Below, in pieces: positions 22,926 through 51,853 of a stretch of 64,000 nt of DNA. This DNA comes from a virus. Each line of letters begins with the position of its first letter. Within the stretch, counting starts at the first letter, position 1. The notes under the pieces are model-generated. The model saw only the letters and a list, made by a program, of their open reading frames with translations, was not told where the DNA came from and did not search any database. The position numbers and the translations under genes were made by a program. The stretch spans positions 1 through 64,000 of the IMG/VR virus record IMGVR_UViG_3300027770_000027. The stretch is one strand, 5' to 3'.

Positions 22926-23846
22926 TTACTGATCGTTCCAGAATTTGCCTTGTCTTACATAGTCTGTTTTTTGTCCAGACTTACTCTGTAGAGGGGCAAT
23001 ATTTCCTTTGAATTCTGTGGGCTTACCATCTACCTTAGCACCTTTAGGAACTTGGGCCTTTCCCTTGGCAACATTAACAGCTCCTTTAACAACATTGTTT
23101 TTAGGATTTGTAAAGTTGTTGGCAAGACGTTCAAGATCTACTAAAGCAGTGCCAAGTTCTTCGGCGTCTACTTCTTCTTCAACTTTACTGTCTTCACCGT
23201 CTTCTTCACCACCTTCTTCACCTTCTTCTTCGTTAACGGTGTTTTCTCCAAAGGGATTACCAGTACCTTCTTCTCCTTCTTCGTCTTCTTCTCCTTCTTC
23301 GTCTTCTTCTCCTTCTTCTTCGCCACCTTCTTCATGTTCTTCTTCTTCTTCTTCTTCTTCAGATTCACCTTCTTCGTGTCCTGTGGCCTTTTCCAAAGCA
23401 GCTACGGCTGCTCTTAAAGCATGTAACACTTGAACCATGGGGTCTTCATCTTCTTCAGAGGCTTCTGCTTCTCCTTCACCGGATTCTGCATCACCGCTAA
23501 AATTTAAATCTAAATCACCAGCGGGGGCTCCACCAAAGTTAGGTTGGCTGTTGGCTTCTTCATCAGATTCCCAGTTTTCCTGAGCTAAAATTTTATTATA
23601 AAGAGAATCAAAGGGATTGGTTGAAGCATTAACTAAAGTTTTCTTAAGGGGTTTGGGAGAAGTTTCTGCCCCGTCTGAATTAAGTTCCTTAGAAGCTTCT
23701 TTAGGTTTGTCAACCGTTTCACCTTCTTGTTTGTTGATCTTCACCTTACCGAAATAAGGATCCTTTGAGGGAGTGATATCGGAACCTTTAACGGCTTGAC
23801 CTTCACTTTCGTTTAAGATTTTGTTGTAAGCATCTAGTAATGACAT
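22926..23846 (-). CDS. highly acidic protein, possible prohead core or packaged protein
   Basis: 306 residues. Starts MSLLDAYNKILNES and repeats a similar motif at about 78 (LYNKIL). Residues ~120-230 are dominated by Glu runs encoded by GAA/GAG repeats. Such polyanionic proteins act as prohead scaffold cores, internal proteins or DNA mimics; none can be chosen from sequence. The N-terminal ILNE fits the (I/L)-x-E cleavage rule of T4 gp21 prohead protease. It has its own late promoter (15-nt gap) and a strong terminator, so it is a single-gene unit. Confidence 0.65.
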   Translation of the reverse strand: MSLLDAYNKILNESEGQAVKGSDITPSKDPYFGKVKINKQEGETVDKPKEASKELNSDGAETSPKPLKKTLVNASTNPFDSLYNKILAQENWESDEEANSQPNFGGAPAGDLDLNFSGDAESGEGEAEASEEDEDPMVQVLHALRAAVAALEKATGHEEGESEEEEEEEEHEEGGEEEGEEDEEGEEDEEGEEGTGNPFGENTVNEEEGEEGGEEDGEDSKVEEEVDAEELGTALVDLERLANNFTNPKNNVVKGAVNVAKGKAQVPKGAKVDGKPTEFKGNIAPLQSKSGQKTDYVRQGKFWNDQ

Positions 23847-30872: not shown

Positions 30873-31427
30873 TTATTTATCTCTCAACACACCAATGTAT
30901 GGCAAATTTCTATAAAGACCATTATAGTCTAAACCGTACCCAACTATAAATTCATTTTCTATATCAAAAGCTTTATAGTCTGCTTCTATTTCTATAGATC
31001 TTTTTACCTTTTTATTTAACATTACACAGGTTTTAACTTCTTTAGCTCCATTGTTTTCCATGGCTCTTTTAAGAGTGGACATGGTTAATCCCGAGTCTAA
31101 GATGTCATCAACTAATAAAATATTTTTACCATGACAGAAAGAAAGATCTTGAGAATTGTATACCACTAGACCAGTACTTTCTTTTCCTTGATAACTAGAA
31201 ACTTTAAGAGATACTAAATCAATATCTATTGTCATTTCTATAATTAAATTTGCTGCAAAGATTAAACTACCTTCTAATAGATAGACTACTGTTAATTCTT
31301 TGCCGTGATAATCTCTGCTAATTTGTCTGCCCAAAGATTGACTTTTACCAAGAATTACCTGCTTATTAAATAAAATCCGCTCTATATCTGGATGCACAAA
31401 AACTCCTGTGTTTAAATCTATAGCCAT
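30873..31427 (-). CDS. hpt: hypoxanthine phosphoribosyltransferase
   Basis: 184 residues, usual size. VVYLLEGSLIFAANLI, the PRPP loop NILLVDDILDSGLTMSTL and the C-terminal FIVGYGLDYNGLYRNLPYIGVL are HPRT signatures. It joins hypoxanthine or guanine to PRPP for purine salvage, in line with the nearby RNR and dCMP deaminase genes. Confidence 0.92.
   Translation of the reverse strand: MAIDLNTGVFVHPDIERILFNKQVILGKSQSLGRQISRDYHGKELTVVYLLEGSLIFAANLIIEMTIDIDLVSLKVSSYQGKESTGLVVYNSQDLSFCHGKNILLVDDILDSGLTMSTLKRAMENNGAKEVKTCVMLNKKVKRSIEIEADYKAFDIENEFIVGYGLDYNGLYRNLPYIGVLRDK
30874..30881 (-). promoter_or_regulatory. late promoter GATAAATA
   Basis: Late octamer 5 nt before the ATG at 30868. Confidence 0.65.
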
Positions 31428-31844: not shown

Positions 31845-34547
31845 ATGAATTTTAGGGAATTTTTTACAGAGGCTGGTAAGATCTTGTCCAAACAGGGTAT
31901 AGAACTATCTAGAGTAAACAAGCAAGACTTTTTAACAGCCAAAGCAAAATTAAACCCTATTCTTCAAAGGGCTGGGTTGACTGCTGGGTGGACTGCCGGT
32001 GGTGCGGGGAGTTTTGATCCAGAACACCCATATGGTGGTGGTGGCAGAGATGACTCTGGAGATATAGACATTTTAATAGATCCTGTAGAATTAATTCAAA
32101 AATTTCCTAAAGACATTGCAGAATACGTAAAAGAATTCAACGCAAGAGCCAAAACAGAAGGTAAAAAACCTATAGGTGATGTAGCTTTGAATAATGCTTT
32201 AGCAATACCTGCCAAGAAAAGTGAACTACAAATAAGTGCTAGTAAATGGGAGCTAGCAAAATATATGTCTCAAAATGGTTACGAAACTACTCCAGGAACT
32301 TTGACGTTACAATATTCTGTAAACGGAAAAAATCATTCTGTAGATTTAATTTTAAGACCCAAAAGTGCCTGGGAGTTACACACTCACGACTTTACAAAAG
32401 ATGCTGGAATGAGAGGAAGTGATCTTTGGTTAAAGATTTATCCTCTCTTGGCTAAGTTAGCTAGTAAAACAAAACTTCCACCAGATCCAAAAACTGGAGA
32501 AGAAAAGGGCAATTTACAATTTAGTCCAGAAAGGGGAGTAGTAGATAGAAATACCAATGAAGTGATAACTTCCAATAAAAATGAGATAGCAAAACTTTTA
32601 TTAGGACCAGATGCATCTGCTGTAGATTTAGCTAGTCTTTCTGGCATTAAAAATAAATTAATGAATCAACCCGAAAAATGGAATGCAATCAAAGAATTTT
32701 ATCCAATTAAAAATGAAAGCATGGACTTAGGAGTTTTAATGGAAGGCATTGACCATCCAGAGGATAATATTATTAATAACGGATATGAAGGAGCCGAACA
32801 GGCATTTAAACAAATGTCTTCTCTGGTCAAAAATAGTAAGACAGTTACCATTAAATGGGATGGTTTTCCAGCAATTATTTTTGGGTGGAAAGAAATTCCT
32901 TCTAAAAATAATCCAAACGGTCAATTTTTGTTTGTAGACAAACACATGTTTGATAAAATGGCTAAGAGTAAACTAGAGTTTACATCTATAGAAGATTATG
33001 ACAAAGGTCGCGGAGCCAATAGACAAAGCCTATGGGAAGCCGCAGCAATGATGGTCCCTACAATGAAAAAAATTGTTCCCATGACTCAAGATCAATACTT
33101 TTTCGGAGATCTTATGTGGTCTGGAATGCCTAAGATTCAAAACGGATATTATGTATTTGAACCCAACACCGTAAAGTATCAGGTCAAAATTGACTCTGAC
33201 TTGGGAAACACTATAGGCAAGAGTGTAGGTGGTATAGCCATACACACCTTTATACCATCTATGGGCGCGGAGGATAGACCGTTGAAGGGATTGCAGGGAT
33301 TAAAACAAAACAATGGAATAACTTTCTTAGTTGGGGAAATTAAAGAAAAACCAAAAATTGCTCTGTCTACAGACCAGTTATCTCAAACTCAAGAAATTCT
33401 TAACTCAAATAAACATGTTGTCAAACAATTTGTGGGTGATCTTAAAACGTTAAAATCTGCAGTTGTTTTATCCAGCATGTCGCCGTTTATTACTTCGATG
33501 TTAAGAGACAATGATATAGCATCTGATATAGTTCCTAGATTTTTAACATTTCTTAAAACTAGATTATCTGAAGGACAGTCTATAAAATTATTAGGCATTA
33601 ATAAAGACGGATGGCTTTATAAAGAAGGTGCTCGCGGTTTAATAGGAATTTGGTCTATATGGGCGGCTTTAACTGAATTAAAACTTAACATTAAAAAGCA
33701 AATAGACCTTCAACAAACCGGTCTTCCTGTACAGGCTCGGATAGGCGAAGAAGATTCTCATGAAGGATATGTTTTTGGATCCGGAGCTAATAAATTAAAA
33801 CTTATAGATCGACTAGGATTTAGTAAAGCAAATTTTGCCAAAAATAATGTTGCTGGAGAAGATGTTTCTTCAAAATTAAATATGCCCGCAGCTTCATTTT
33901 GTTTTGGTCGAATGAATCCACCAACTGTGGGTCACAAAGCTTTGATGCAAAAAACTATCGAAAAGGGTGGTACTAATTCTTTTATATTTTTAAGTAATAC
34001 TCAAAATTCAAAAAAAGACCCACTAAATCCAGATATTAAATCTCAATTTGTAAAATTAATTTATCCAGAATTTGCTCCACATGTTGTTGATGAGAAAGTA
34101 TTAAATCCGATTTATGCTGCAAATTATCTATATGCTAAAGGTTTTAGAAATTTAATTTTTATTGCTGGCTCTGATAGATTGGGTGATAATCAAGGTAGTC
34201 TTGAAAAATTATTGACTAGTTGGAACAGTGGGGCTATTAGAACCAAAGATACTAATTTTGGCCCACAAGGAAGAGAACAAGTGGCTTTAAGATTTGTTAG
34301 CAGTGGAGACAGAGATCCAGATGCTACCGAAGGAGACGTAAGTGGTATATCTGCTTCTTTAGCGAGAAAGTTAGCAACTGAAGGCAATGAACAAGGATTT
34401 TATAAAGCCACAGGAGTTTCTTCTAATCTAGTAGTTGCTGGTAAAAATCTCTATCAAGCTGTAAGAGAAGGAATGGGACTTTCAACTGTTAAACCACCCG
34501 TATCTGAAAGTATCATTAGTTTCAAAGAATTTCTCTTTAAAACTTAA
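31845..34547 (+). CDS. triple nucleotidyltransferase fusion: pol-beta-type, ligase-type and HIGH-type domains
   Basis: 900 residues with three unrelated nucleotidyltransferase folds. (1) Residues 48-170: pol-beta type, with GG-x-GS at 52-56, GDIDILID at 72-79 (Asp73, Asp75) and a third Asp at 167 (VDLIL). (2) Residues ~335-655: covalent ligase type, with motif I KWDG at 337-340, FFGDLMW at 419-425 (motif III-like), EGYVF at 640-644 (motif IV-like) and KLKLID at 650-655 (motif V-like); this part resembles the DUF6267 proteins of T4-like phages. (3) Residues ~685-860: a HIGH cytidylyltransferase fold with GRMNPPTVGH at 688-697 and GISASLAR at 834-841. The start MNFREFFTEAGKIL resembles the packaging peptides of T4 internal proteins, and the end repeats it (SFKEFL). 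It is a single late gene. The domains are read from motifs; the joint activity (RNA or tRNA repair, nucleotide modification, or host RNA attack) is unknown. Confidence 0.8.
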   Translation: MNFREFFTEAGKILSKQGIELSRVNKQDFLTAKAKLNPILQRAGLTAGWTAGGAGSFDPEHPYGGGGRDDSGDIDILIDPVELIQKFPKDIAEYVKEFNARAKTEGKKPIGDVALNNALAIPAKKSELQISASKWELAKYMSQNGYETTPGTLTLQYSVNGKNHSVDLILRPKSAWELHTHDFTKDAGMRGSDLWLKIYPLLAKLASKTKLPPDPKTGEEKGNLQFSPERGVVDRNTNEVITSNKNEIAKLLLGPDASAVDLASLSGIKNKLMNQPEKWNAIKEFYPIKNESMDLGVLMEGIDHPEDNIINNGYEGAEQAFKQMSSLVKNSKTVTIKWDGFPAIIFGWKEIPSKNNPNGQFLFVDKHMFDKMAKSKLEFTSIEDYDKGRGANRQSLWEAAAMMVPTMKKIVPMTQDQYFFGDLMWSGMPKIQNGYYVFEPNTVKYQVKIDSDLGNTIGKSVGGIAIHTFIPSMGAEDRPLKGLQGLKQNNGITFLVGEIKEKPKIALSTDQLSQTQEILNSNKHVVKQFVGDLKTLKSAVVLSSMSPFITSMLRDNDIASDIVPRFLTFLKTRLSEGQSIKLLGINKDGWLYKEGARGLIGIWSIWAALTELKLNIKKQIDLQQTGLPVQARIGEEDSHEGYVFGSGANKLKLIDRLGFSKANFAKNNVAGEDVSSKLNMPAASFCFGRMNPPTVGHKALMQKTIEKGGTNSFIFLSNTQNSKKDPLNPDIKSQFVKLIYPEFAPHVVDEKVLNPIYAANYLYAKGFRNLIFIAGSDRLGDNQGSLEKLLTSWNSGAIRTKDTNFGPQGREQVALRFVSSGDRDPDATEGDVSGISASLARKLATEGNEQGFYKATGVSSNLVVAGKNLYQAVREGMGLSTVKPPVSESIISFKEFLFKT

Positions 34548-37633: not shown

Positions 37634-39001
37634 TTATTGGCAAGCCCAATCTACAGATTCATTTGTATTCAATTGAATAGATTTGGTGGATTTGGGATAA
37701 GTCAACATCAAGTTTAATTGATCCGGTTCAAATCCTCCAGAAGCAGTTCTGACCTGTAATATAAATTGTTTGACTTTATTGTTTTTACCTTTAGTCCATA
37801 ATTCTATATCAAAGTGTTTTTTCTTCTTTGTTTTGGATTCAAAATATGGATAAGAAATATATCCACCATCACTTAGTGGTTCACCTATAAAATCTAAAAC
37901 ATCCTGTGGTGTCATTAAACTTTCAAGTTGCATACCATCTTTTTCCAGGTCTCTCAAATAGTAATAACCATATGAACAAGCGGCTTGAACCATCTCTTTT
38001 ATATATTGTGAAGAACCTGGAATGATATCTCTTTTGAACGAAGTTTGATTACCCTCAATTTTTCCCATATAAGCCGCGCCAGTTTTACTTAATCTATCCA
38101 ATGCAAATTCTACATCAAAATTTAAATTGGTTAACATGTGTCCTACAAAGCTTTTAGTTCCGTTTGGATCAAATCCAAAAGCTGGTTTTTTAGTATCTGT
38201 ATAAAAGAATAAACCAGTTGCTCCTGAGTTTAATATAGTGTATCCGTCTATATTTTTAAAAGATATATAAATTTCCTTTCCGTTGATATCTTTTCCTATC
38301 ATATCTGCTATGGCAGAACCATAATCTTCACATTTACCTGTAAAGGGTCTTCGAGTAGAACCCTTCCGAGATTCTACCGATACAATCTGTATATTGAATT
38401 TTTCTTTGAATAAATTTATTACAACATTATCAGCTGGTCTTTCACTTTCAGAAGAAGCTTTAAGAGTATCTAACATTTGTTTTTCGGCTTGATTTCCTTT
38501 ATTTCCAAAAGTTCCTTTGCCGATTACTATCTTGCACTCTGTTGAAAAATCTGGTTGATTAGTTTCTGGATTAATTTTTGCTATTAAATATGTATAAAAT
38601 TTTGAAGAAAGAGAATCAGCTGTTCTTCCAATGCCTTGAGATGTTTCGTCAGGCACATCGTTGTAAGGATTACTTCTCTTCACACAGACATATCCGGATC
38701 CTTGGATAATAGCATTCAATTCGTCCGCGGATAAATTTGTATATTTGTCTGCAGATTCTTGATCCTGAGCTGTAATTCTGATGTGAGGATGTTTTTCAGC
38801 AAATACCTTAGAAGTTTTATTTGCTATCTTTACCTTTCCCGGAAAAAAATTTCTCAAAACTACACCAGCTTCTAGTAGTCTTTTACCCAAAGGAGAGGCA
38901 GCTGCCTCTAAGATGCTGCTATAAGTTTCTGTTAAAGATTGTTTTTTTACAGTATTTGATTGTTTGGAAAGGCTACTCCAAAAATGGTGATTGAAAGGCA
39001 T
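37634..39001 (-). CDS. large hypothetical protein, candidate packaged protein
   Basis: 455 residues. The N-terminus has TYSSILEAAAS near residue 30, an I-L-E site like those in other proteins here. The middle is alpha/beta with a strand segment (GKEIYISFKNIDGYTILNSG). The C-terminal ~100 residues have many aromatic residues. Some elements recall nuclease-like folds (a Glu/Asp-x-x-Lys-like strand) but I cannot identify a family. Single late gene (octamer 6 nt upstream). Confidence 0.6.
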   Translation of the reverse strand: MPFNHHFWSSLSKQSNTVKKQSLTETYSSILEAAASPLGKRLLEAGVVLRNFFPGKVKIANKTSKVFAEKHPHIRITAQDQESADKYTNLSADELNAIIQGSGYVCVKRSNPYNDVPDETSQGIGRTADSLSSKFYTYLIAKINPETNQPDFSTECKIVIGKGTFGNKGNQAEKQMLDTLKASSESERPADNVVINLFKEKFNIQIVSVESRKGSTRRPFTGKCEDYGSAIADMIGKDINGKEIYISFKNIDGYTILNSGATGLFFYTDTKKPAFGFDPNGTKSFVGHMLTNLNFDVEFALDRLSKTGAAYMGKIEGNQTSFKRDIIPGSSQYIKEMVQAACSYGYYYLRDLEKDGMQLESLMTPQDVLDFIGEPLSDGGYISYPYFESKTKKKKHFDIELWTKGKNNKVKQFILQVRTASGGFEPDQLNLMLTYPKSTKSIQLNTNESVDWACQ

Positions 39002-51115: not shown

Positions 51116-51853
51116 TTAAGAAATTAATGTTTTATTGATAAGGTTTACGTAAAAATTATCAAAGAAATTTGCAGGCCTTGCGGCAGATTTTCCAGCAGCG
51201 GGCAAACCACCTCTTCTGCGTTTAGAGGTTCCAGCGGCTGGTAATTTGCCCCTTCTAGGCTTGGTAACTGGCGGTTCTGTTAAAGGGGGTTCTGTAGAGG
51301 TTCCTGGTTCAGTTGAAGGAGGGGGTGTTCCAGATTCAGCTGGAGGGGGCTCTGTAGTTGTTCCTGGGTCAGTTGAAGTGGCAGGATCTGTTGTTCCGGG
51401 ATCTGTTGAAGTAGCTGGATCTGTTGTTCCGGGGTCAGTTGGAGGAGGGGTTGTAATTGCATCTGGTTCTGTAGGGTTAATGTTACTCGATCCTGAAATA
51501 GTTTCTACTGTCTTAGATATGTTGGAAACTAGGTCTGTAATGTTTTGAGTACTTGGTCTTCTTCCTTTTGGAAAAAGTCCTAATTTGTAAAAATCATTCA
51601 ACATATCAGTTGCGTGAGATTTTGCTATAGACTGAATTTTAGCTGAGGTCCCTTCTTTGGCAGCATCTTGAGTATTAATACCCGCTCCTCCAGTTCCACG
51701 AACAATAGCCTTTCCTACAGCACCTACATTAGAAGCCATAGTACTTGCAGCCGTTTTAGCTCCTTGCAGCCTTGCACCTATGCGGCTAAACAGCCCTTCT
51801 TCTAAAGTATTTCCGTTTAAAGCATCTTGTACATATTCATTAAATGATCCCAT
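51116..51853 (-). CDS. repeat-rich virion or packaged protein
   Basis: 245 residues. The first ~110 are helical (start MGSFNEYVQDALNGNTLEEG). Residues ~128-195 are Thr/Pro/Asp repeats (units like TDPATSTDPGT) encoded by an imperfect DNA repeat. The C-terminus has a duplicated basic motif, RGKLPAAGTSK and RGGLPAAGKSA. Proline-threonine linkers followed by a basic tail suggest a surface or DNA-contact protein. The late octamer TATAAATA, 7 nt upstream, is the perfect T4 consensus. Confidence 0.6.
   Translation of the reverse strand: MGSFNEYVQDALNGNTLEEGLFSRIGARLQGAKTAASTMASNVGAVGKAIVRGTGGAGINTQDAAKEGTSAKIQSIAKSHATDMLNDFYKLGLFPKGRRPSTQNITDLVSNISKTVETISGSSNINPTEPDAITTPPPTDPGTTDPATSTDPGTTDPATSTDPGTTTEPPPAESGTPPPSTEPGTSTEPPLTEPPVTKPRRGKLPAAGTSKRRRGGLPAAGKSAARPANFFDNFYVNLINKTLIS
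51350..51440. repeat. imperfect tandem repeat coding for Thr-Pro-Asp units
   Basis: Near-repeats of about 33 nt (CTGTTGTTCCGGG recurs) inside the gene at 51116-51853. Confidence 0.6.

What the first reader, a model, noticed from the sequence alone, without database searches (positions are those of the whole stretch)
31845..34547. One protein combining three unrelated nucleotidyltransferase folds
The 900-residue product carries a complete pol-beta-type site (GG-x-GS, D73/D75, D167), a ligase-type site (KWDG at 337, FFGDLMW, EGYVF, KLKLID) and a HIGH-type site (GRMNPPTVGH, GISASLAR). Each fold is known to transfer nucleotides, but joining all three in one chain suggests a linked reaction such as ligand activation, transfer and sealing of RNA, or a multi-step nucleic-acid or tRNA modification. 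The presence of tRNA and tmRNA genes makes RNA repair or defence evasion plausible. This is the most promising candidate for a new system in the window.
Basis: partly seen in the sequence, partly recalled or inferred. Interest (0 to 1): 0.88.

Follow-up and report, generated by a model that had tools for sequence, protein, structure and literature searches.

The report
Three-enzyme phage protein, probably packaged
A T4-like virus of bacteria makes one long protein holding three different nucleotide-transferring enzymes, with start and joint sequences suggesting that it is loaded into the virus head, cut apart there and injected with the DNA; what the enzymes do together is still unknown.

Summary
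In detail: ORF 31845-34547 (900 aa) is one chain with all the motifs listed, in a 227-kb T4-like phage. It is not an isolated oddity. It fuses a conserved gene cluster: pol-beta-type domain (NT), DUF6267 ligase-like domain (LIG) and adenylyltransferase-like domain (CT). Aquatic T4-like phages carry NT|LIG-CT, NT|LIG|CT, NT-LIG, LIG|CT and LIG-CT, with fusions on several branches. Catalytic residues are invariant across 46, 60 and 39 sequences. NT folds confidently and resembles family X DNA polymerases. CT relatives are annotated as NMN adenylyltransferases. The ligase fold of LIG rests on motifs; structure and profile searches were weak or inconclusive. New here: the protein starts MNFREFFTEA, like the T4 capsid-targeting peptide MKTYQEFIAEA, the only one of 284 ORFs here to match. 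At the NT/LIG joint an [ILV]xEG site is invariant in 27 distinct sequences, split or fused, fitting the phage's own prohead protease. Relatives of CT with such a tag were found in cyanophage virions by mass spectrometry (published). Best reading: a head-packaged, protease-cut enzyme kit ejected with the DNA, probably for nucleic-acid end repair coupled to NAD+/NMN chemistry (function inferred). Packaging of this protein itself is not shown.

The parts
31845..34547 (+). Whole ORF, 900 aa: tag-NT-site-LIG-CT
   Evidence: one intact place in the 227,352-bp virus record
31845..31871 (+). N-terminal capsid-targeting-like tag, residues 1-9 (MNFREFFTE|A)
   Evidence: Resembles T4 ipII/ipIII MKTYQEFIAEA, gp24 MAKINELLRES and gp23 FGSFLTEA; only 1 of 284 ORFs of this phage matches the T4-derived pattern; same type of tag on virion-detected CT relatives S-CREM2 gp154 (MKNFSSFLTEA) and S-SCSM1 ORF91 (MKSFLQFLKEA)
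31872..32735 (+). NT: pol-beta-superfamily nucleotidyltransferase, residues about 10-297
   Evidence: AF2 pLDDT 91.5; PDB fold matches all family X polymerases at the top; SGDxD and D167 invariant; no Pfam family
32736..32747 (+). Putative prohead-protease site at the NT/LIG joint, residues 298-301 (L-M-E|G)
   Evidence: [ILV]xEG directly before I[DET]HxED in all 27 distinct junction or N-terminal sequences, whether the genes are fused or split, in an otherwise variable stretch
32745..33848 (+). LIG: DUF6267, covalent-nucleotidyltransferase-like, residues 301-668; putative nucleotidylated lysine K337
   Evidence: PF19782 E 8e-35; invariant H304, E306-D307, K337-W-D-G, G421-D422, K613, E640-G-x-V643; AF2 pLDDT 93.1; fold match to ligases weak
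33888..34499 (+). CT: HIGH-type (TxGH) adenylyl/cytidylyltransferase-like, residues 682-885
   Evidence: PHROG 3041/395 cytidyltransferase; profile matches in PDB to NadM/NadR NMN adenylyltransferases, weak; relative annotated NMNAT in S-SCSM1
34518..34544 (+). C-terminal SFKEFLFKT, possibly a second tag or processing signal
   Evidence: Similar ends in L006-L008; T4 Alt is processed at both ends (PMC5694885); pattern alone not significant in this genome, 4 of 284

Best explanation
The protein is a head-packaged polyprotein of a T4-like phage. Its first ~9 residues act as a capsid-targeting sequence that puts it into the prohead core. The phage's own gp21-type protease then cuts after E9 and after E300, releasing a pol-beta/Pol X-like enzyme (NT) and a ligase-like/NMN-adenylyltransferase-like enzyme (LIG-CT) inside the head. 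They are ejected with the DNA. In the cell they most likely act together on nucleic-acid ends at the start of infection: NT adds nucleotides, LIG activates and seals through K337-AMP, and CT supplies or recycles NAD+/NMN. Shown: the ORF, domain families, invariant catalytic residues, the conserved gene cluster with repeated fusion, and presence of a protease and capsid protein of T4 type. Supported by relatives: the tag and virion location. Inferred: packaging and cutting of this very protein, the ligase fold, and the reaction. Rough step probabilities: NT and CT assignments 0.9, ligase-type LIG 0.75, packaging 0.7, cut at E300|G301 0.6, end repair 0.35.
For: Module: LIG with NT and/or CT in the great majority of 148 loci, as one, two or three genes in the same order; tree needs separate fusions for NT-LIG, cyanophage LIG-CT and NT-LIG-CT. 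Catalysis: invariant motifs. Folds: NT near Pol X; LIG model confident, next named viral matches after its own family include RNA ligases, a capping enzyme and a DNA ligase, at low probability. Packaging: tag matches T4 CTS; in cyanophage S-CREM2 5 of 25 virion-detected non-structural proteins carry it against 0 of 144 undetected ORFs (Fisher 5e-5; proteome PMC10665884 Table 3); CT relatives gp154 and S-SCSM1 ORF91 are among the tagged virion proteins (PMC9602691). This phage has gp23 and S77 protease genes. Joint site invariant. T4 CTS peptides of 10-20 aa are removed by gp21, Alt is cut at both ends (PMC7411985, PMC5694885). Some relatives carry an AAA_33/zeta-type kinase beside LIG and CT (18 loci), an end-healing-like partner.
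Against: No virion proteome exists for this phage. The tag is not universal: S-PM2 LIG-CT and many marine LIGs lack it, and S-CREM2 LIG (gp87, no tag) is not in its virion list. The tag pattern was relaxed after a first look (first rule: 2/25 vs 0/116, p = 0.03); the second phage adds one tagged virion protein of 15 vs 0 of 46. No solved ligase structure matches LIG. HIGH-type enzymes act on small molecules, so CT does not fit end repair directly. No substrate is known.
Confidence: 0.42

Rival explanations
1. An injected effector: NT and LIG nucleotidylate host targets (tRNA 3' ends or proteins) to disarm the host, as T4 Alt modifies RNA polymerase; CT changes the NAD+ or nucleotide pool.
For: Head-packaged non-structural enzymes of T4-like phages are often host-directed or counter-defence (T4 Alt, IPI*; PMC3012670); S-CREM2 virions also hold a kinase, SAM hydrolase and another pol-beta-type NTase, gp156. 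Single pol-beta NTases often modify tRNA or proteins (general knowledge).
Against: The nearest solved folds of NT are template-using Pol X enzymes, with small NTases (cGAS-like, OAS, CCA) far behind; the pairing with a ligase-like domain suits nucleic-acid joining better.
Confidence: 0.22
2. A cytoplasmic, unpackaged enzyme of NAD+/nucleotide salvage in infected cells; the N-terminal sequence is a coincidence and the joint is a plain linker.
For: CT resembles NadM/NadR NMN adenylyltransferases and its relatives are annotated NMNAT; neighbours look like ribonucleotide reductase, dCMP deaminase and phosphoribosyltransferase genes (phosphoribosyltransferase by PHROG); many relatives lack the tag.
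Against: Tagged relatives are found in virions; the joint E-G is invariant in a variable stretch; NT and LIG have no role in known NAD+ salvage.
Confidence: 0.2
3. LIG is not a nucleotidyltransferase of the ligase kind but an unrelated fold in which KWDG, GD, EGYV and KLK are conserved for another reason.
For: No ligase among the listed PDB fold matches; no Pfam ligase among the listed matches of 60 members; profile-profile scores not significant.
Against: Four ligase motifs in the right order are invariant or nearly so; viral RNA ligases, a capping enzyme and a DNA ligase stand out among the named non-family matches; a ~115-residue helical insert between the motif IIIa-like strand and EGYV can explain poor global scores.
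Confidence: 0.12
4. The fusion is neutral and the three enzymes work independently.
For: Cyanophages do without NT, other phages without CT; a large group of loci has an NT-type gene with neither LIG nor CT found in the fetched DNA.
Against: Fixed gene order and several independent fusions among the same partners.
Confidence: 0.04

Closest known systems
Cyanophage T4-GC_71 / T4-GC_190 pair (DUF6267 plus 'cytitidyltransferase'), fused in S-PM2
   Same: Same two families, same order, adjacent or fused
   Different: No NT domain found in the sequenced phage records by tblastn; often no tag; about 25-30% identity
Virion-borne NMNAT-like proteins of cyanophages (S-SCSM1 ORF91, S-CREM2 gp154)
   Same: CT family, T4-like N-terminal tag, detected in virions
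   Different: Single CT domain with a C-terminal extension; not fused to LIG or NT
T4 internal/ejection proteins (IPI-III, Alt)
   Same: CTS-like N-terminus next to a gp21-type Glu site; phage has gp21 and gp23 homologues
   Different: IPs are small proteins and Alt an ADP-ribosyltransferase; none is a nucleotidyltransferase polyprotein
African swine fever virus Pol X and DNA ligase (viral gap filling and sealing)
   Same: Pol X-type polymerase paired with a ligase in one virus for repair (PMC5330486, PMC6344480 abstracts)
   Different: Separate proteins, unrelated virus, no NMNAT; homology not shown
T4 RNA ligase 2 (Rnl2)
   Same: Order of motifs: K-x-x-G, FGE/GD, EGYV, KxK
   Different: No significant sequence or profile match; DUF6267 has a large helical insert and an invariant H-x-E-D before motif I

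Membership tests
Pol-beta (family X-like) nucleotidyltransferase, for NT | GS/GG followed by DxD and a third Asp | tested here: met
   SGDxD (71-75) and D167 invariant in 46 sequences
Pol-beta (family X-like) nucleotidyltransferase, for NT | Palm fold | tested here: met
   Top 23 PDB matches are Pol beta/lambda/mu, prob up to 1.00, but E no better than 2e-3 and TM up to 0.44
Pol-beta (family X-like) nucleotidyltransferase, for NT | Nucleotide transfer activity | not testable with these tools
   needs purified protein
DUF6267 (PF19782), for LIG | Score above the curated cut-off | tested here: met
   121.3 bits vs 27; all 60 members match
Covalent nucleotidyltransferase (DNA/RNA ligase) superfamily, for LIG | Motifs I (KxDG), III, IV (EG), V (K) | tested here: met
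   Invariant or at least 90% in 60 sequences, right order
Covalent nucleotidyltransferase (DNA/RNA ligase) superfamily, for LIG | Ligase fold | tested here: inconclusive
   No PDB ligase; weak viral RNA ligase matches, prob <= 0.2; hhalign without power
HIGH-type nucleotidylyltransferase, NadM/NadR-like, for CT | (H/T)xGH and ISxxxxR motifs | tested here: met
   P15, G19-H20, S159, R164 (alignment numbering) invariant in 39 sequences, T17 nearly so
HIGH-type nucleotidylyltransferase, NadM/NadR-like, for CT | Significant match to NMN adenylyltransferase | tested here: inconclusive
   Best NadM/NadR matches E 0.02-0.5, behind spurious S-layer hits
T4-type capsid-targeted (ejection) protein | Short N-terminal CTS ending in a gp21-type Glu site | tested here: met
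   MNFREFFTE|A; 1 of 284 ORFs
T4-type capsid-targeted (ejection) protein | Phage encodes S77 prohead protease | tested here: met
   G000 162854-163345, E 1e-25
T4-type capsid-targeted (ejection) protein | Present and cut in mature virions | not testable with these tools
   Only relatives have proteomes

The most novel reading that the evidence does not exclude
A virus head carries a self-contained, protease-liberated nucleic-acid end-repair machine: a Pol X-like nucleotidyltransferase and an NAD+-using ligase of a new family whose released NMN is turned back into NAD+ by the NMN adenylyltransferase in the same chain. The invariant H-x-E-D helix ahead of motif I would be the NMN-binding element. 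It acts on incoming phage DNA or host RNA in the first moments of infection.
Probability: 0.12. Interest if true: 0.9.

Novelty: new variant of a known kind. Interest (0 to 1): 0.62.

Why it matters
LIG (DUF6267) occurs in hundreds of marine cyanophages and has no known function; no paper naming it was found in the library. The window links it to a polymerase-like partner, and the tag gives a place of action (head, ejected) that can be tested at once. If right, T4-like phages of lakes and seas deliver a ready-made nucleotide-transfer kit into the cell, and an inner-head protease is used to split a fusion protein into working enzymes.

Tried and rejected
Assembly artefact: rejected, same fusion in several contigs. 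Linkage to tRNA/tmRNA genes: nothing supports it. Pfam for NT: none at E up to 10. PDB sequence search for the whole protein, NT or LIG: nothing useful. Profile-profile LIG vs T4 Rnl2 and T4 DNA ligase: not significant, and Rnl2 vs T4 ligase failed too, so the test had no power; it does not count against LIG. Foldseek LIG vs PDB: no ligase. A C-terminal tag by itself: 4 of 284 ORFs match, not significant. First tag rules: strict 2/25 vs 0/116, loose 7/25 vs 14/116 (p 0.03 and 0.06); the T4-derived rule was set after seeing those lists and is therefore partly post hoc. The architecture label NT-CT-LIG is an ordering slip of the script for NT-LIG-CT. Papers on 'cytitidyltransferase' or DUF6267: none.

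Full report
What is there. Window 31845-34547 (+) is a single intact ORF of 900 codons, in a 227,352-bp virus record that has a T4-type major capsid protein (PF07068, E 3e-90) and a T4-type prohead protease (Peptidase_S77, E 1e-25). The listed motifs are all present at the stated places. Pfam finds DUF6267 (residues 302-666) and a sub-threshold CTP_transf_like match; PHROGs gives cytidyltransferase families for the C-terminal part. The first 300 residues match no Pfam family and no phage record by tblastn.

It is a fused gene cluster. Scans of viral contigs, with domain profiles built from the close relatives, show the same three domains in the same order in every degree of splitting: NT-LIG-CT in one chain (window, L005-L009, L013, L017, and L035 up to the contig end), NT | LIG-CT (40 loci, some the same contig fetched twice), NT | LIG | CT, NT-LIG, NT | LIG, LIG | CT (56 loci) and LIG-CT. 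In phage records LIG and CT are the pair T4-GC_71 and 'cytitidyltransferase' of about 500 mostly cyanophage genomes, adjacent in S-MbCM7 and fused in S-PM2. A maximum-likelihood tree of LIG places the window in a supported clade of six fused proteins. It requires separate origins for the NT-LIG fusion and at least two label changes for the cyanophage LIG-CT form. Repeated fusion of the same partners is the strongest evidence that the three work together. One relative splits LIG and CT again (L038). In many pelagiphage-like loci a kinase of the AAA_33/Zeta_toxin kind sits beside the pair, usually between LIG and CT (18 loci with the kinase).

The folds. NT: AlphaFold2 gives pLDDT 91.5 from 46 sequences; the first 23 PDB matches are DNA polymerases beta, lambda and mu, before cGAS-like, OAS, Cid1 and CCA enzymes. 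E-values are modest (best 2e-3) and TM-scores up to 0.44, so the superfamily is safe but the subgroup is not. CT: the profile reaches NadM and NadR type NMN adenylyltransferases in PDB only weakly and behind spurious matches, but relatives in phage records are annotated NMNAT or cytidylyltransferase. LIG: pLDDT 93.1 from 60 sequences. Its invariant columns include K337-W-D-G, G421-D422, E640-G-x-V643, with K652 nearly so, the order of motifs I, III, IV and V in ligases and capping enzymes. Yet no solved ligase matches the model. In predicted viral structures, fifteen significant matches come first, several of them recognisable as members of the same family; the next named ones include RNA ligase 2, an African swine fever virus RNA ligase, other RNA ligases, a capping enzyme and a DNA ligase, all at low probability. 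Profile-profile tests had no power because the positive control failed. I therefore hold the ligase-type reading at about 0.75.

Where it acts. The protein begins MNFREFFTEA. T4 ipII and ipIII begin MKTYQEFIAEA, T4 gp24 MAKINELLRES, and T4 gp23 has FGSFLTEA in its propeptide (sequences read). T4 internal proteins and Alt carry such 10-20-residue capsid-targeting sequences, which gp21 removes, and they enter the cell with the DNA (PMC7411985; PMC3012670); Alt is processed at both ends (PMC5694885). A pattern derived from the T4 sequences matches 1 of 284 ORFs of this phage, namely this one. In cyanophage S-CREM2, whose virion proteome is published (PMC10665884 Table 3), 5 of 25 detected non-structural proteins match and 0 of 144 undetected ORFs do. 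One of the five is gp154, a clear relative of CT (161 bits), beginning MKNFSSFLTEA. In S-SCSM1 the NMNAT-annotated virion protein ORF91 is also a CT relative (212 bits) and begins MKSFLQFLKEA; it is the only match among 61 genes tested in the stretch read. Its authors note that NMNAT-like proteins are repeatedly found in cyanophage virions (PMC9602691). The pattern was relaxed after a first look at S-CREM2, so its p-value is optimistic; the S-SCSM1 check used the fixed pattern but adds one case only. Natural counter-example: S-CREM2's LIG (gp87) has no tag and is not in the virion list, and S-PM2's fused LIG-CT has no tag. So packaging is a property of tagged members, not of the whole family.

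The joint. Directly before the conserved I[DET]HxED start of LIG, all 27 distinct sequences, fused or at the beginning of a split gene, read [ILV]-x-E-G, while the residues further upstream vary freely. This is the form of a gp21-type site. In split genes it ends the N-terminal tag; in the window it has become an internal site (L-M-E300|G301). The simplest reading is that the prohead protease cuts the 900-aa protein into NT and LIG-CT in the head. This is inferred, not shown.

What it does. A Pol X-like enzyme beside a ligase-like enzyme suggests adding nucleotides to and sealing of nucleic-acid ends; African swine fever virus is a precedent for a virus using its own Pol X and ligase in repair (PMC5330486 and PMC6344480, abstracts). 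The adenylyltransferase does not act on polymers; it could supply or recycle NAD+ if the ligase uses it. That last step is conjecture, resting only on CT's kinship and on an invariant H-x-E-D ahead of motif I. An injected host-directed nucleotidylating effector, or NAD+ salvage in the cytoplasm, remain open.

Verdict. Observation confirmed. Interpretation partly supported. Known families in a new arrangement, with a testable packaging and cleavage logic for which I found no earlier description.

Noticed in passing
L042:8876-9895, L043:8876-9904, L024:6954-8828: A second NTase-like protein (GGWDT..GSSAY..YGDIDLQ) lies between NT and LIG-CT, or is fused ahead of NT; no Pfam family.
   Followed up: partly
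L001:7706-8368 and 17 further loci (e.g. L160, L161, L176): AAA_33/Zeta_toxin-type kinase beside LIG, usually between LIG and CT, in pelagiphage-like modules; two copies read start with a similar tag.
   Followed up: partly
L048-L077: About 30 contigs carry an NT-type protein of about 280-325 aa starting MSGNALKKLGI or similar, with no tag and no LIG or CT found in the fetched DNA.
   Followed up: no
L199:6513-7226 (S-CREM2 gp156): Another pol-beta-type NTase (NTP_transf_2), two genes from CT, also detected in S-CREM2 virions.
   Followed up: partly
virus record 72304-73770 and 105643-106035 (loci L109, L111): Four small proteins share an N-terminus (MRTKDSILLEQAYxxVLES and variants), possibly another packaging-type tag.
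   Followed up: no
window 22926-23846 and 51116-51853: Low-complexity acidic or T/P-rich proteins with N-termini ending in ILNES or LEEG; possibly head-packaged.
   Followed up: no
window 30873-31427: Phosphoribosyltransferase gene next to the finding; a similar gene is also next to it in L006 and L007.
   Followed up: no
window 37634-39001: 455-aa protein without any Pfam or PHROG match.
   Followed up: no
L324:42459-43793 (S-SCSM1 ORF90): Annotated virion protein directly upstream of the NMNAT; not DUF6267 by profile. It may be related to the gene found upstream of LIG in other cyanophages.
   Followed up: partly
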